Origin: Synergistaceae bacterium
GTDB taxonomy: Bacteria; Synergistota; Synergistia; Synergistales; Aminobacteriaceae
Assembly: GCA_017405525.1 (NCBI GenBank)
Contig: JAFRAH010000016.1
Coordinates: 44,285-108,284, forward strand
Direction of reading: 5' to 3'
DNA length: 64,000 nucleotides
Positions 10,288 to 39,846 of the stretch are shown here, one piece after another. Both the position numbers and the translations under genes were made by a program. The notes beneath the pieces were generated by a model. It searched no databases. It was not told the DNA's origin and saw only the letters and a program-made list of their open reading frames with translations. Positions within the stretch are counted from its first letter, which is position 1. Each line of letters opens with the position of its first letter.

Positions 10288-12726
10288 TTATTCCGCGAAA
10301 ATTCTTCGGAGCATGTACGATTTCATCAGGTTGTGCATCGCGTAGGTTTCCCCCGACACAAAATTATTCTCGCCCTCAGTGAAGAACTGCCCTGTGTCAT
10401 TCCTGGAGACCATCCCGGAGATTACGCCCAAGTGTTCGCCCGCCCAGTCAGAAGCCTTGAGGCCGTAGGGACATTCACCGTCAAGCCCGAAAACTTCAGC
10501 TATCGTGTCAGTCAGGTAGAAGCCTGCGTACCATTTCCCGCCCCAGTCGTTCACGCCGGGCATGTTCACTTCAGGGGAGGGTCTGCCGTCATCAGTGCGC
10601 TCGTAGAAGTGATGTCCTGCCTTTGAGCTGTCGTAAGTGCCTAAGTCGACGCTGACCAGTGCGGTAAAAATCTTGTCGGCGTTGAAGGTTGATGCCCCCG
10701 GAAATTCCCTGCCAGCAAGTCCGTAGATTATCGCCGTGTCAATCATCCCCTCAAGTATCACGTTCATGTAGTCGATGTGAACTAGCCCATGATTTATGAC
10801 CGTACCGTCAGAGTTCAGGTTTGACCCGTGAAGAACGTCAAAGGCCGTAACGTCTTCGGGGCGTGCAGTCGAGGACATGAGGAGCTCCGTCAGTTTGTCC
10901 TGCCACTTGTGATTGTTCGGGTGCTCAGGAAGCATACACACAGCAAGCGAAAGTATCCTGGAGTTCCAGGCGTTCTCCTCGCCTTTTGTGTCGTTGTCGT
11001 GAACTAGCCTGCCGTTCTCGTCCCTGAAGTAGGGCACTCTGTAGTCATTGAAGCGGTCTGACTCACTCACGAGCATGTTGACCACATAAGAACGGTCAAT
11101 GTCCTCCAGTTCGTCCCACAAGAGCCAAGCCGCGAACGCAATATTCTCTGCCCACAATGCACTCTGCCACTGACTGCCCCAGCCTGAAGCCATGTTCGAG
11201 CAGTGAGACCTTGCCAGTGAAGCAACCAGTTTCACCGTCATGGCCTGAGCGTCCTCCTGACTTATGCCGGTTATGTCCGGGTCATAGAGGCCGAACTTGA
11301 GGGCTGAGGCCACAGTGAAGCACAGATGCCCCCAAGGACGCAATGAGTTTTCCTGCTGTGTGCTGTCTATGACGTTGGGCAGGTAAAGGTAGCGTTCATT
11401 CCGCCAGTTCGTGAATGAGGCTGAAGACTTCCTGATTTCGTTTTCCTCGAACGCCGATAATTCCCCGCTACTGTATACGAAGCTCGAAGACTTCAGGAAA
11501 GCCTGACGTTGCCCGCTGTTCCACTGAGTATTCAGAAGGTACTTGAGGTTTTTGGCGATGATGTCCGAAAGAGTGCCGGGCATTCTCTGAGTGTTTATCC
11601 TGCTCCATTCAGGGAGGCGGACAACTGAGGGAGTGATCTTGTGCCTTGCATGTGCAACCCCTAAGCCAGCTCCTGCAGCAATCACAGCAAGAAGGACAAA
11701 GGCCACGTTCAGGCGGAAGTCTGAGCTCCTTCCTGCGGCGGCCTTCAGCTTTGTGCGTGAAAATATTTCGTTGAGGAGGTAAAGCAATGCCATAGTGAGA
11801 AGGAAAATGATTAACCCTGAGAACTTGGCGTGAAGCTCAATGTGAAAGCTCCGTGCCAAAAAAGACACAAGCCTTGTCGCTGCGTGGATGACAATCTGGT
11901 TCATGCAAACATAAATGATTGAGTTTCTGCCGATGTACTGAAGGTGTGAGTCTAGTTTTGAGGTCTTAAAGTATGAGTGTATCAACTTGGAGAGGTTGAG
12001 GCCAACGATTGAAGAAACCAGCGCATTAACGAACGAAAATATCATGCCCCCCCCCCCATTGCCATAAATACCTAGTCGCATGTTCACGTAGCCATTCATG
12101 AAGATCATTGCTGTAGCTACAACCCCGGCAATAAGCGTCTGAGGCAGTGATAGCGTGAAGAGTTTTCCGTGAGTGGTGAGCAAATATCCCGCGTGGTAGA
12201 GACCAAGCCCAACACATGAAGCACCAAAAGCCCAATACAGACGGAAAGGCCAGACATGATAGGCAGTGAGCCCGAACATGGTCAACAGGATGATGATGAC
12301 GTTGCGGGTGAACTTATTGCGGACAAAGATGGAGAGCGCGTAATACATGCATTGTGTGAGGAACAAGGCAGTGAGAAACCATAAAGCCCCCGCCAATCCT
12401 AGACCTTCGGTGTTCACCAAGAGAAGATGCCTCAGCATGGAGAGGTAATCTAGTCCCCTGCGATTCATGTAGAGCCACACGAGATAGTGAAATGCCCCGA
12501 AACATACATAAGGGATTAAGAGAGTACGAGCCTTCTTCCTGACAACCGACAAATAATTACGCTCTTCAGGGTTGAAGAACATTCCCGACACGAAAAAGAA
12601 CATTGGCATGTGGAAGGCATGAATGAAGTAGTCAAACCTTCCACCAAAGCCTATATGCCCCATGACCATGAAGATTATTCCGAAAGCCCTGAAGATGTCT
12701 ACATAGTCAACCCTTCTGACACTCAT
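10288..12726 (-). CDS. Membrane acyltransferase (family 3) fused to a large C-terminal domain
   Basis: An 812-residue two-part protein. Residues about 1-345 are an acyltransferase-3 membrane domain with about ten transmembrane helices; the conserved start DIFRAFGIIFMVMGHIGFGG and FHMPMFFFVSGMFF are typical of enzymes that O-acylate surface sugars. A further hydrophobic segment near residue 360 leads to a soluble domain of about 430 residues, probably periplasmic, rich in Trp and helices (GWGSQWQSALWAENIAFAAW), which I do not recognise with certainty; it recalls alpha/alpha-toroid glycan lyases. A tract of 11 G encodes Gly224-227 between membrane helices. A loss or gain of one G would truncate the protein. 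It lies between the rhamnose importer and rhaM, but behind a terminator and with its own TAAGGAGG site. Confidence 0.8.
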   Translation of the reverse strand: MSVRRVDYVDIFRAFGIIFMVMGHIGFGGRFDYFIHAFHMPMFFFVSGMFFNPEERNYLSVVRKKARTLLIPYVCFGAFHYLVWLYMNRRGLDYLSMLRHLLLVNTEGLGLAGALWFLTALFLTQCMYYALSIFVRNKFTRNVIIILLTMFGLTAYHVWPFRLYWAFGASCVGLGLYHAGYLLTTHGKLFTLSLPQTLIAGVVATAMIFMNGYVNMRLGIYGNGGGGMIFSFVNALVSSIVGLNLSKLIHSYFKTSKLDSHLQYIGRNSIIYVCMNQIVIHAATRLVSFLARSFHIELHAKFSGLIIFLLTMALLYLLNEIFSRTKLKAAAGRSSDFRLNVAFVLLAVIAAGAGLGVAHARHKITPSVVRLPEWSRINTQRMPGTLSDIIAKNLKYLLNTQWNSGQRQAFLKSSSFVYSSGELSAFEENEIRKSSASFTNWRNERYLYLPNVIDSTQQENSLRPWGHLCFTVASALKFGLYDPDITGISQEDAQAMTVKLVASLARSHCSNMASGWGSQWQSALWAENIAFAAWLLWDELEDIDRSYVVNMLVSESDRFNDYRVPYFRDENGRLVHDNDTKGEENAWNSRILSLAVCMLPEHPNNHKWQDKLTELLMSSTARPEDVTAFDVLHGSNLNSDGTVINHGLVHIDYMNVILEGMIDTAIIYGLAGREFPGASTFNADKIFTALVSVDLGTYDSSKAGHHFYERTDDGRPSPEVNMPGVNDWGGKWYAGFYLTDTIAEVFGLDGECPYGLKASDWAGEHLGVISGMVSRNDTGQFFTEGENNFVSGETYAMHNLMKSYMLRRIFAE
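12047..12057. repeat. Homopolymeric tract of 11 C (G on the coding strand)
   Basis: An uninterrupted run of 11 C inside the acyltransferase gene. On the coding strand it reads GGG GGG GGG GGC (Gly224-227). As read here the gene is in frame. Runs of this length slip readily during replication. Confidence 0.95.
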
Positions 12727-36744: not shown

Positions 36745-37737
36745 CTATCCCTGCAGATTTTTGAACCGTTTGTGAACATAATACAAGAAGCAGGGATTTT
36801 TCCACACATTACCGCCGAGCGAGTATATATAGCTGATGTCTTTTCCGTTTTTCCACAGCACATAAGGCAGGCTCAATTGGTCTCTGTGCGTGAAGCGTTC
36901 TATCTCTTTCCACCAGTCATTCATGATTCCGTGAAGCTCTATGTCGTTGCACTTGCGGATAATCACCGGGGATTCAGGAAGCCCGAAATGTTCCGGCATA
37001 CCCTGACTCCTGTAGAAGTCCATTTGCTGACGTGTTGCCTCGTATGTCAGAACCCCGCCCGCAAAACAAGCGGCTGCCTCGTCATATATGCAGTCCCTTA
37101 AGTAATGCATGTGCATTGCTATAGTTCTTCCGTCGTCAATCAGTGAATACACGAGGGGTTTTATGTCGCAAGTGATTCTAAATGAGCCGTCAATATATAC
37201 TGTGTAGTCGTAACCTTCCGGGAGTATTTCGTCAGGATGGAGCTTGATGTATCTCTGTTTCTTCACATTGCTGAGTCCGTCAAGCCGCGCGGGAACAGGT
37301 ATAGCCCTCCATGTATGCCCCCCCCCCCCCCTATGTGTAATTACTGCAGAGGAATCCGTAACAACGTAATAATCAATATCATCATCAATGTATACGGGAT
37401 CTTTCAAGTCATCATAGCCGCCGGTTATAACAGTGTAGACAGCAATTTTTGCATCGGGGAATTTCTTTTGCGTTGGGGTAAAGATATTCATGCTTTCAGG
37501 TGTCCTGTTTGCGTTCCTCAAACGCCGTATGTAGTCGTTCGTGCAGTAATCGTAGCGGGCTTTTAGTTTGCCGTATATCTTCCTCAACGGCCAAGTGAAA
37601 AGCAGAAACGGGTTCTTCATGGCTTTCTTTATGCGTGATGACATGCTCATGCCTGCTATTGTTTTGAGGTCTTTCTCCTGCCGCCTCAAAAACTCACCGT
37701 ATACCTCAAATACAACATCGTTAATGCTTGTACTCAT
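36745..37737 (-). CDS. DUF616 family glycosyltransferase-like protein, with a poly-G tract
   Basis: A 330-residue protein matching the DUF616 (TOD1/MUCI70 hydrolase or glycosyltransferase-like) family: KIAVYTVITGGYDDLKDP, IDYYVVTDSSA, RYIKLHPDEILPEGYDYTVYIDGSFRI in pieces, RDCIYDEA, and RDQLSLPYVLWK. Family members sit in capsule and glycan loci; a role in surface sugar assembly is inferred. A tract of 14 G encodes Arg136-Gly140 (HRGGGGHTW), in an area where relatives have a few ordinary residues. The gene is in frame as read. It stands alone between two terminators, with a GTGAGGTGA ribosome site. Confidence 0.82.
   Translation of the reverse strand: MSTSINDVVFEVYGEFLRRQEKDLKTIAGMSMSSRIKKAMKNPFLLFTWPLRKIYGKLKARYDYCTNDYIRRLRNANRTPESMNIFTPTQKKFPDAKIAVYTVITGGYDDLKDPVYIDDDIDYYVVTDSSAVITHRGGGGHTWRAIPVPARLDGLSNVKKQRYIKLHPDEILPEGYDYTVYIDGSFRITCDIKPLVYSLIDDGRTIAMHMHYLRDCIYDEAAACFAGGVLTYEATRQQMDFYRSQGMPEHFGLPESPVIIRKCNDIELHGIMNDWWKEIERFTHRDQLSLPYVLWKNGKDISYIYSLGGNVWKNPCFLYYVHKRFKNLQG
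37318..37331. repeat. Homopolymeric tract of 14 C (G on the coding strand)
   Basis: An uninterrupted run of 14 C in the DUF616 gene, reading A-GG GGG GGG GGG GGG on the coding strand (Arg then four Gly). A run of this length is very prone to slippage, and to miscounting in sequencing. Confidence 0.95.
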
Positions 37738-37771: not shown

Positions 37772-37795
37772 CCCCTCCCGTAACTCAGAGAGGGG
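37772..37795 (-). terminator. Probable terminator of dhaK
   Basis: On the minus strand CCCCTC pairs with GAGGGG, 12-nt loop, followed by TTTCTG. The T run is weak. Confidence 0.55.
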
Positions 37796-37811: not shown

Positions 37812-38807
37812 CTAGAACTGGACGAACGCCGGAGTATCTGCCGGGGCATTCAGGAACTTCTTGAGCTCGTCATCAAGTTTCAGGAGGGTGATCGAGAAGC
37901 CTTCCATGTCGAGGGAAGTCATGTAGTTACCCACATACGTCCGCGCTGTCTTGATGCCCTTGCTGTCCAGTACTTCCTTCACGTGCCGGTTCGCAACGAA
38001 AAGCTCCATCAACGGAGTACCGCCCATACCGTTCACCATCACTGCAACCTCATCACCTGCCGCGTATATTCCCTCAGCAAGGATTTTCCCAAGCAACTTG
38101 TCGGCTATTCCGTTCACGTCAGAGATCTTCTCCCTGTGTGTTCCGGGCTCCCCGTGAATGCCGATGCCTATCTCTATCTCGTCATCAGCAAGCTCAAAGC
38201 TCGGTTTCCCCGCCGCAGGTACTGTGCAGGCATTAACCGCCATTCCCATTGAGCGGACGTTCGCTATGACCTTCTCCGCTACCCTCTTCACTTCCGGGAG
38301 AGAGAGCCCGGCCTCAGCACTTGCACCCGCTATCTTGTGGACAAAGACAGTCCCGGCTATTCCCCTGCGTCCTGTCGTCCATGTCGAGTTCTCCACTGCC
38401 ACGTCATCCGCAACTATGACCTGCTCAACGTCAATTCCCTCATCTTTGGCCATGTCAGCCGCCATCTCGAAGTTCATTACGTCGCCCGTGTAGTTCTTGA
38501 TGACGAGGAGGACTCCCTTTCCGCCGTTGACCGCCTTCACTGCCTCGTAGACCTGATCGGGTGTAGGGGACGTGAAGACCTCACCGGCAACAGCACCGTC
38601 AAGCATTCCGCGCCCGACAAAGCCCCCGTGTGAAGGTTCATGGCCTGAGCCGCCGCCAGACACAAGCGCAACCTTGCCCGGATTACCGCCCGAACGAACT
38701 AGGACGTTGAAGCCCTCAAGCCTCTTCACGTACTGGGGAAATGCCGCAGTCATTCCGTCAAGCATCTCATCTACTATGCTGTCTACTTTGTTGATTAACT
38801 TCTTCAT
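37812..38807 (-). CDS. dhaK: Dihydroxyacetone kinase subunit DhaK
   Basis: Substrate-binding subunit of the PTS-dependent dihydroxyacetone kinase, 331 residues. It shows LVSGGGSGHEPSHGGFVGRGMLDGAV in conserved pieces, KNYTGDVMNFE, and the His that binds dihydroxyacetone covalently in GIGIHGEPG. Third gene of dhaL-dhaM-dhaK, 15 nt after dhaM. Confidence 0.96.
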   Translation of the reverse strand: MKKLINKVDSIVDEMLDGMTAAFPQYVKRLEGFNVLVRSGGNPGKVALVSGGGSGHEPSHGGFVGRGMLDGAVAGEVFTSPTPDQVYEAVKAVNGGKGVLLVIKNYTGDVMNFEMAADMAKDEGIDVEQVIVADDVAVENSTWTTGRRGIAGTVFVHKIAGASAEAGLSLPEVKRVAEKVIANVRSMGMAVNACTVPAAGKPSFELADDEIEIGIGIHGEPGTHREKISDVNGIADKLLGKILAEGIYAAGDEVAVMVNGMGGTPLMELFVANRHVKEVLDSKGIKTARTYVGNYMTSLDMEGFSITLLKLDDELKKFLNAPADTPAFVQF

Positions 38808-38822
38808 GATTTATTGCCCTCC

Positions 38823-39218
38823 TTATAGTTTGTTGGCCTCCCGCGATTCTTCCGCCGCCGAAAGCACCGCGTCAACACTTCCTCCACCTGCCGCCTCAAC
38901 AACCGCACACACAGCACCCTCAACAATAGGAGCATCAGCTATCACCGCGTTGATCTCGCGCCCCTCGTCCTCCAGGAGCTCTATTGCCGCCTCAGCACTC
39001 ATTATTGCGCTCCCTATGTCCGCAAGTATCACCACGCCATCGCCTGAGTCTGCCTCGACGATTGCGTCAGCGATTCGTTGTGCGTCAGTACCTGTTGAGC
39101 CGTCCTCAAGTCCTCCTGCAGGGATTAACCCCTCAATTCCCTGTGCCATCTCGCGGGCTAAATCACAAACCCCTTCGGCTATCTTCCAGCTGTGAGACAC
39201 TATTACGATGCCTACCAT
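38823..39218 (-). CDS. dhaM: Dihydroxyacetone kinase phosphotransfer subunit DhaM (EIIA only)
   Basis: A 131-residue PTS EIIA-type protein that passes phosphate to DhaL-ADP. The phospho-accepting His is His9 in VIVSHSWKIAEGV. It is the short single-domain form; the E. coli protein carries extra HPr and EI-like domains. General PTS proteins from elsewhere are therefore needed. Four nt separate it from dhaL. Confidence 0.93.
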   Translation of the reverse strand: MVGIVIVSHSWKIAEGVCDLAREMAQGIEGLIPAGGLEDGSTGTDAQRIADAIVEADSGDGVVILADIGSAIMSAEAAIELLEDEGREINAVIADAPIVEGAVCAVVEAAGGGSVDAVLSAAEESREANKL

Positions 39219-39222
39219 GTCG

Positions 39223-39846
39223 TTACTTCCCCTTTATGTAGTCGCGTATTGCCTCAAGCGTAATCATGGCCGATGTTGCCCCCGGATCCTGATGGCCTAT
39301 GCTCCGTTCACCGAGATAGCTCGCTCGTCCCTTCGTGGCTATTATGGTCTTTGTGTACTCGACACCTTCACGGGCTGCCTCACATGCCGCATCAAGTGCC
39401 CCGGCCATGTCTGCACCCTCGTAGAGCCTCCGGGAAAATGCCGTGCTTGCCGGGATGATGGCATCAAGCATTGTCTTCTCACCCTCTACAGCTTTTCCGC
39501 GCTTCTGGATACCAGCGATTGCCGCCTCAAAGACCGCCTTCATGTCTTCGGGAGTGAGTTCGGTCTTTCCTGCCGTGATTTTCCCCGCCTCCATGTATGC
39601 AGTGCCATAGAGCGGCCCGGATGCCCCGCCGACTTTCGAGAGGAGGGTCATTCCTGCCTTCTTGAGCGTTGCGCCGATGTCCGTATCTTCGGGGGTAAGT
39701 TTCTCCATTACTGCCTGAAAGCCCCGTGCCATGTTTATGCCGTGATCTGAGTCGCCTATCTCGCGGTCTAGTTCAGTGAGAAGGTCTTTGTTCGCCGTGA
39801 TACGTTCTGAGATGAGGGAGATGCATTCATATATTCCGCCAGGCAT
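39223..39846 (-). CDS. dhaL: Dihydroxyacetone kinase ADP-binding subunit DhaL
   Basis: A 207-residue helical subunit holding ADP, which is phosphorylated by DhaM. Nucleotide and magnesium ligands lie in REIGDSDHGINMARGF; further conserved parts are GGASGPLYGTA and ATKGRASYLGERSIGHQDPGA in pieces. First gene of the operon with a CGGAGG site 11 nt before the ATG. Its product step yields dihydroxyacetone phosphate. Confidence 0.95.
   Translation of the reverse strand: MPGGIYECISLISERITANKDLLTELDREIGDSDHGINMARGFQAVMEKLTPEDTDIGATLKKAGMTLLSKVGGASGPLYGTAYMEAGKITAGKTELTPEDMKAVFEAAIAGIQKRGKAVEGEKTMLDAIIPASTAFSRRLYEGADMAGALDAACEAAREGVEYTKTIIATKGRASYLGERSIGHQDPGATSAMITLEAIRDYIKGK

What the first reader, a model, noticed from the sequence alone, without database searches (positions are those of the whole stretch)
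37318..37331. Fourteen-base poly-G tract inside a DUF616 glycosyltransferase-like gene: probable phase-variation switch
The run encodes Arg-Gly-Gly-Gly-Gly at residues 136-140. Change by one or two bases shifts the frame before the conserved YIDGS and RDQLSLPYVLWK parts and gives a truncated protein. The DUF616 gene is alone between terminators and likely acts on a surface sugar. Long G/C runs are otherwise absent from this 64-kb window (longest others are seven), so chance is a poor explanation. Phase variation by poly-G is known in Campylobacter, Helicobacter and Neisseria; I am not aware of it being described for Synergistota.
Basis: partly seen in the sequence, partly recalled or inferred. 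Interest (0 to 1): 0.7.

Follow-up and report, generated by a model that had tools for sequence, protein, structure and literature searches.

The report
Poly-G switch with shared flanking motif
In a Synergistaceae bacterium, a run of 14 G's inside a predicted sugar-transferase gene is one of 23 such runs in the genome, and a change in its length would likely switch the gene off or on, as runs in other predicted surface-sugar genes of that genome already break the reading frame; in this genus many of the runs share a short upstream DNA motif whose role is unknown.

Summary
The G14 tract is real (window 37318-37331), and poly-G phase variation is its best explanation, but it is one part of a whole system. 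The genome holds 23 G/C runs of 9 or more (15 of 11 or more; 0.8 expected). Fifteen of the 23 lie in glycan- or envelope-type genes. By an ORF criterion, 13 of 18 intragenic tracts break the frame in the assembly and 5, both window tracts among them, keep it. A 99% identical DUF616 protein has three tract glycines instead of four; a sister species' contig ends inside the tract; a metagenomic homologue ends in an out-of-frame tail after GGG; 19 of 28 aligned homologues lack the glycine run. Unexpected: in this genus a degenerate motif (about TACGTAATTTTAC, often GTA-N4-TAC) lies upstream of many tracts in unrelated genes (77 of 141 against 6-9 in control windows), not in other genera; it is weaker in this genome. 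Fifteen of 58 other tracts lie in promoter-like -35/-10 spacers. MutS and MutL are present. No paper found on poly-G phase variation in this phylum. Switching within one culture is untested.

The parts
36745..37737 (-). DUF616 / TOD1_MUCI70 gene, 330 aa, predicted GT-A glycosyltransferase; in frame (ON) in this assembly
   Evidence: ORF; Pfam PF04765 above cut-off; model of the 99% identical P0001 matches GT-A glycosyltransferases
37318..37331 (-). G14 tract (C14 on +), encodes the end of R136 and G137-G140
37337..37344 (-). GTAATTAC, palindromic copy of the upstream motif, five bases before the tract on the coding strand; PWM score only 7.3
   Evidence: read; motif statistics; score
36707..36732 (-). 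terminator-like hairpin after the gene
   Evidence: consensus scan only
37772..37793 (-). terminator-like hairpin between the upstream gene and the DUF616 gene
   Evidence: consensus scan only
10288..12726 (-). second tract gene: 812-aa protein with an acyltransferase-3 domain; in frame (ON) in this assembly
   Evidence: ORF; Pfam PF01757, E 4.3e-24
12047..12057 (-).

Best explanation
The G14 tract is likely a slipped-strand phase-variation switch: gain or loss of G's during replication would shift the frame of this predicted glycosyltransferase at residue 136 and so switch it off or on, and the tract is one of 23 poly-G tracts in the genome. Shown by sequence: the tract, its excess over chance, the set of tracts mostly in glycan- or envelope-type genes, frame breaks at many of them in the assemblies, length differences at homologous tract positions, promoter-like hexamers around some tracts outside ORFs, and an upstream motif confined to this genus. 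Inferred: that lengths change by replication slippage, that this happens within one population, that the enzyme decorates a surface glycan, and that the result is a mixed population facing phage or host. The motif probably marks tracts for something (growth, instability or protein binding); what is unknown.
For: 23 runs of 9 or more in G000, 15 of 11 or more against 0.8 expected; 15 of 23 in glycan- or envelope-type genes; strict intragenic tracts 13 OFF and 5 ON in G000, 58 OFF and 20 ON of 78 in four genomes; in five OFF loci matching Pfam families lie on both sides of the tract (the LicD downstream half is below its cut-off); P0001 is 99% identical with RGGGH for RGGGGH; P0122 carries an out-of-frame tail after YRGGG; the G047 contig ends inside the tract; the C12:93366 gene has G11, G12, G7, G7 and G11 in five species, the last with a broken frame; the permease gene has 9-18 G at its end in 19 of 30 loci read; stops in the other frames are enriched just after tracts.
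Against: All lengths come from consensus assemblies, where long homopolymers can be miscalled; no reads were available. The shorter DUF616 tract is inferred from protein only. P0123, the same-species acyltransferase, has the same number of glycines as the window. Both window genes are ON here. MutS and MutL are present, so no simple repair defect explains instability. Only the G strand was tested as sense; 11 of 141 tracts have an open frame of 150 codons or more on the C strand.
Confidence: 0.85

Rival explanations
1. Transcriptional or translational slippage: RNA polymerase or the ribosome slips on the G run, so every cell makes a mixture of in-frame and shifted product whatever the DNA length; the tract is a dosage device and not a heritable switch.
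For: Long homopolymers are known slip sites for RNA polymerase (passage of PMC3711429, names homopolymers of eight or more); many genes stay split at the tract in assemblies (58 of 78 strict intragenic).
Against: Stops in the other frames are enriched right after the tract (37% against 17% of frames within 3 codons), which suits an OFF state; 15 of 58 tracts outside the strict intragenic set lie in promoter-like spacers, where slippage of this kind cannot act.
Confidence: 0.15
2. Sequencing or assembly artefact: poly-G from two-colour chemistry, or miscalled lengths.
For: Six of 59 G039 tracts lie within 60 bp of a contig end (my count; 0.18 expected), and one such tract has G23 at the very end.
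Against: Most tracts lie inside contigs with open frames or matching domains on both sides; orthologous tracts occur at the same place in independent genomes; the motif transfers between genomes. Exact lengths may still be wrong.
Confidence: 0.04
3. A neutral glycine loop: the run is tolerated protein sequence and its length does not matter.
For: The run lies in a loop of variable length and lower model confidence; both window genes are in frame.
Against: The run is pure GGG codons; 7 of 28 aligned homologues have GGG or more there, 19 do not and 2 start after it; other tract genes in the same genome are frame-broken at the tract.
Confidence: 0.05
4. For the motif only: it is an antisense -10-like promoter element (or a by-product of AT-rich flanks) and has nothing to do with tract instability.
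For: In the other strand the motif reads like TAAAAT/TAATTT; tracts outside ORFs have real -10-like hexamers in the same place; GC falls to about 0.3 within 10 bp of intragenic tracts.
Against: None of 78 intragenic tracts has 11 of 12 promoter matches, two reach 10; the motif beats shuffles of the same flanks (AUC 0.68-0.92); TACGTA is enriched about 40-fold in intragenic flanks.
Confidence: 0.35

Closest known systems
Poly-G/C phase-variable genes (phasomes) of Campylobacter, Helicobacter and Neisseria
   Same: G runs of about 7 or more inside surface-glycan genes and in promoters, ON and OFF lengths, tens per genome (PMC6321876 and PMC2823697, passages; abstracts in listing).
   Different: Another phylum, about 52% GC in the window, MutS and MutL present, and an upstream motif shared by tracts in unrelated genes. 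The words 'motif' and 'consensus' do not occur in PMC2823697 and 'motif' not in PMC6321876.
Promoter-spacer poly-G/C switches such as Neisseria porA
   Same: Tract between -35-like and -10-like hexamers in 15 of 58 tracts outside the strict intragenic set; porA promoter poly-G is named in the abstract listing of PMC3639595.
   Different: Spacings here are 18-23; expression not measured. The window tracts are not of this type.
TOD1/MUCI70 (DUF616) glycosyltransferase-like family
   Same: Pfam match above cut-off and GT-A-like model.
   Different: A poly-G tract in a variable loop; acceptor and donor unknown.
Site-specific DNA inversion in Synergistetes
   Same: A form of phase variation reported as putative in 1 of 2 Synergistetes species (PMC5903667, one passage).
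   Different: Inversion, not tract slippage.

Membership tests
Simple-sequence-repeat contingency locus, poly-G type | G/C run of 7-8 or more in an ORF or promoter | tested here: met
   G14 and G11 in the window; length rule from PMC6321876 passages
Simple-sequence-repeat contingency locus, poly-G type | More such tracts than chance gives | tested here: met
   15 runs of 11 or more against 0.8 expected
Simple-sequence-repeat contingency locus, poly-G type | A length change would alter the frame, with ON and OFF alleles seen in nature | tested here: met
   For the set: 13 OFF, 5 ON in G000; C12:93366 gene ON in G000 and broken in G040. For DUF616 itself ON alleles only; an OFF allele only in a homologue (P0122)
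Simple-sequence-repeat contingency locus, poly-G type | Length variation within one species | tested here: inconclusive
   P0001 implies a tract three bases shorter, from protein only; P0123 shows none for the acyltransferase
Simple-sequence-repeat contingency locus, poly-G type | High-rate reversible switching in a population | not testable with these tools
   no reads or cultures
Simple-sequence-repeat contingency locus, poly-G type | Genes of surface structures | tested here: met
   15 of 23 by Pfam name; surface location itself inferred
TOD1_MUCI70 (PF04765, DUF616) | Profile match above the curated cut-off | tested here: met
   60.3 bits against 21.4
TOD1_MUCI70 (PF04765, DUF616) | GT-A-like fold | tested here: met
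   Foldseek best hits GT6, GT8, LARGE1, probability 1.00, best row TM 0.40/0.53; moderate similarity
TOD1_MUCI70 (PF04765, DUF616) | Glycosyltransferase activity on a surface glycan | not testable with these tools
   no assay

The most novel reading that the evidence does not exclude
In this genus poly-G switches are built and kept unstable by a dedicated system: a trans-acting factor (for example a nickase, a polymerase or a replication-blocking protein) recognises the GTA-N4-TAC / TACGTAATTTTAC element beside the tract and creates, lengthens or destabilises the G run at chosen genes despite intact mismatch repair genes. Element and tract together form a contingency cassette, and slippage is directed rather than passive.
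Probability: 0.25. Interest if true: 0.9.

Novelty: new variant of a known kind. Interest (0 to 1): 0.64.

Why it matters
It extends poly-G phasomes to Synergistota, with 2 to 59 tracts per genome in 43 genomes of one genus, so surface glycans of these bacteria are probably as mixed as those of Campylobacter. More surprising, tracts in unrelated genes share an upstream DNA motif, which plain slippage does not need. If the motif acts in cis, it makes an open question testable: how cells choose where hypermutable tracts arise, and how these stay unstable when mismatch repair genes are present.

Tried and rejected
Rejected: a single isolated tract (23 in the genome); loss of MutS or MutL as the cause (matches in G000 and in 76 and 73 of 81 family genomes); a conserved glycine linker; the motif as a property of any poly-G tract (38 genomes of other genera of the family: 4 forward places against 5 control; G070 with 32 tracts gives 1; the 104 genomes outside the family, summed by eye: 12 against 11, and 16 against 33 on the over-counted strand); the motif as mere AT-richness (beats shuffles of the same flanks, AUC 0.68-0.92).

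Against the motif: it is weaker in the window's own genome (GTA[AT] in 12 of 23 against 12 of 115 control windows; AUC 0.74-0.76 there; trained on G000 alone another consensus comes out, with AUC 0.66-0.79). Motif-like sites without a tract are common: of 95 sites scoring 12 or more in the tract loci, 29 have a run of 9 or more close by. The window's two tracts score only 7.3 and 7.7, below the best 25 window sites, none of which is at a tract. The 'found in 89-98%' fraction of the EM models says little, since control windows give similar fractions with far lower likelihood.

Led nowhere: the genome-contig scan gave one MAG only. Papers: 'phase variation' with Synergistota 0, with Synergistaceae 0, with Synergistetes 7; of the seven I saw passages of two (PMC5903667: putative inversions in 1 of 2 Synergistetes species; PMC3711429: 218 frame transitions in two Synergistetes genomes) and only the listing of five. 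Searches were unspecific; searches showed no paper on a motif beside poly-G tracts in what was listed. Passages only: PMC2823697, PMC6321876, PMC11868660, PMC2831843.

Rows dropped: one search holds 141 tracts (G000 23, G023 49, G039 59, G060 10 of 24). One search used 136 away from locus ends. One search used 133 after removing like flanks. 'Strict intragenic' means 35 or more open codons on both sides (78). One search scanned 86 pieces of 60 codons or more from G023, G039 and G060. Alignment A2 used 28 of the 122 proteins listed. For the permease 30 loci were read; the search had matches in 43 genomes.

Full report
OBSERVATION. The tract is C14 on the + strand at 37318-37331, G14 on the coding strand of ORF 36745-37737. 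It encodes the last two bases of AGG (R136) and four GGG codons. The statement that no other G/C run exceeds seven is wrong: C11 lies at 12047-12057 in the acyltransferase-3 gene 10288-12726 (-). By an order-3 model from the window, with its long runs taken out, 0.0004 runs of 14 or more are expected per window; per genome 0.8 of 11 or more (15 seen) and 0.013 of 14 or more (4 seen). At 9 or more the excess is modest, 23 against 13.

WHAT IT SITS IN. The gene matches TOD1_MUCI70 (PF04765), E 2.6e-16. A model of the 99% identical P0001 has mean pLDDT 81.7; its best solved matches are GT6, GT8 and LARGE1-type GT-A glycosyltransferases, Foldseek probability 1.00, best row TM 0.40 by query and 0.53 by target. 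This supports a GT-A fold, not a substrate. The tract falls in a loop (mean pLDDT 70 for residues 131-140, above 90 on both sides) that varies in length and sequence among 28 aligned proteins. Terminator-like hairpins lie on both sides of the gene (consensus only).

IS THE TRACT VARIABLE? P0001, standing for 11 member sequences, has RGGGH where the window has RGGGGH, and one further difference. This implies a tract three bases shorter, but only protein was seen. P0002, P0003, P0022, P0025 and P0122 have three to five glycines at the same place; 19 of the 28 aligned have no GGG there and two (P0024, P0031) start after it. P0122 ends in a tail after YRGGG whose NTTTQFTLTA resembles TTTQYILTA, the window gene read in another frame, so it looks like an OFF allele of a related gene. 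P0025 starts MGGGAWQ and belongs to a contig of 63.7 kb, as expected for the downstream half of an OFF gene. In G047 (81% identical over residues 1-136) the contig stops after ACACATAGG, two bases into the tract; by name this is a red deer Synergistales MAG. G020 (58%) and G050 (51%) have intact homologues with neither tract nor GTAATTAC at that place. The acyltransferase orthologue in G037 (56%) and homologues P0124-P0128 lack the other tract; the 99% identical P0123 has the same four glycines as the window.

THE WHOLE SET. G000 (2.17 Mb, 43 contigs) has 23 runs of 9 or more. Pfam names of the genes: GT2; GT1 (two); GT4/GT1; FucT_N with GT10; GT11; LicD; pyruvyl transferase (two); hexapeptide transferase; acyltransferase-3; TOD1_MUCI70; cytidylyltransferase with GFO/IDH; sulfatase; CDP-alcohol transferase: 15 of 23 of glycan or envelope type. 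The others: an amino-acid permease, a protein with a weak MACPF match, three ORFs without Pfam match, and three tracts in no ORF. By the ORF criterion 18 tracts are intragenic, 13 OFF and 5 ON. In five OFF loci (LicD, GT10, GT2, GT4/GT1, one pyruvyl transferase) one family, or the N- and C-terminal families of one enzyme, match on the two sides; the LicD downstream half is below its cut-off. In four genomes together 58 of 78 are OFF and 20 ON. Stops in the other frames are enriched right after the tract: 37% against 17% of frames within 3 codons. In G023, G039 and G060, 86 pieces gave 89 Pfam families, led by GT2 (7), Caps_synth (5) and a GT2-like family (5). Only the G strand was tested as sense; 11 of 141 tracts have an open frame of 150 codons or more on the C strand. 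In the family, runs of 9 or more number 826 in 43 genomes of the genus (2 to 59 each) and 351 in 38 others (0 to 32).

HOMOLOGOUS TRACTS. The C12:93366 gene (G11) has homologues in four other genomes of 43, with G12, G7, G7 and G11 at the same place; the last has a broken frame, and one G7 copy is split over two contigs. The permease search had matches in 43 of 43 genomes; of 30 loci read, 19 carry a run of 9-18 G at the C-terminal end, one has a run elsewhere and 10 have none.

PROMOTER ARM. Of 58 tracts outside the strict intragenic set, 15 lie between TTGACA-like and TATAAT-like hexamers with 11 or 12 of 12 matches and spacings of 18-23; of 78 intragenic tracts none reaches 11 and two reach 10. 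Length changes would alter promoter spacing; the effect is untested.

THE MOTIF. In the 32 bases upstream of 136 tracts a motif TacGTAAtTtt is found, log-likelihood ratio 285 against 77 in control windows and 78 in shuffles, alike in intragenic and non-ORF sets. [CA]GTA[AT][AT] occurs within 28 bases upstream of 77 of 141 tracts and in 6-9 of 141 in four control windows; TACGTA in 29 against 0-1; GTA-N1-6-TAC in 43 against 1-3. Of 45 such dyads, 31 have a loop of 4 or 5 and 22 end 5-7 bases before the tract. Learned in one species, it separates tract flanks in others with AUC 0.66-0.93 against upstream windows and 0.68-0.92 against shuffles. It lies in two codon phases and encodes many peptides. 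GTAA-N5-15-G9 in 185 Synergistota genomes is enriched in this genus (43 genomes: 126 forward against 14 control_reverse; 409 against 72 on the over-counted strand) and not in the 38 other genomes of the family (4 against 5; 8 against 2) nor outside it (12 against 11; 16 against 33; by eye). It is weaker in G000 (12 of 23 with GTA[AT], 12 of 115 control windows), and motif-like sites without tracts are common.

MECHANISM. Most likely replication slippage on the G run shifts the frame. For this gene an out-of-frame length would end the protein 11 or 17 codons after the tract, before the conserved YIDGS and RDQLSLPYVLWK stretches, and so would abolish the enzyme (inferred). MutS and MutL genes are present, so slippage escapes repair or is promoted; the motif is a candidate for that, unproven.

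LIMITS. Consensus assemblies only; homopolymer miscalls are possible. Six of 59 G039 tracts lie within 60 bp of a contig end (counted; 0.18 expected), which fits mixed lengths or poor coverage. Absence of poly-G phase variation in this phylum from print rests in one open-access library; an inversion type is reported as putative for one Synergistetes species (PMC5903667).

Noticed in passing
window 12047-12057: Second long tract (G11 on the coding strand) in an acyltransferase-3 gene whose relatives lack it.
   Followed up: yes
L043 4999-5012 region and window 37332-37344: Two unrelated tract genes of G000 (DUF616 and the C12:93366 gene) share the 13 bases GTAATTACACATA directly before the G run, as if flank and tract had been copied together.
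   Followed up: partly
L044 (G000 C15:6142-6151); L179-L208: A tract at the end of an amino-acid permease gene, 11 bases before the apparent start of a second permease, recurs in 19 of 30 loci of the genus (9-18 G); it may tune or fuse the second gene.
   Followed up: partly
L037, L048, L059, L062, L073, L123, L130, L154 and others: Tracts in -35/-10 spacers of promoter-like sequences, spacing 18-23.
   Followed up: partly
window 37812-39846 (-): Three ORFs upstream look like DhaK, DhaM and DhaL (named by recall, not scanned); the DhaK-like neighbour is kept next to the DUF616 gene in G047 (L052).
   Followed up: no
L037 5735-8437 (-): 901-aa tract gene with a weak MACPF match (E 6.7e-5), tract G10 near its start; in frame in the assembly. 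Not pursued.
   Followed up: no
L081, L144, L149, L156, L167, L170, L183, L052: Several contigs end at or within 60 bp of a poly-G tract.
   Followed up: partly
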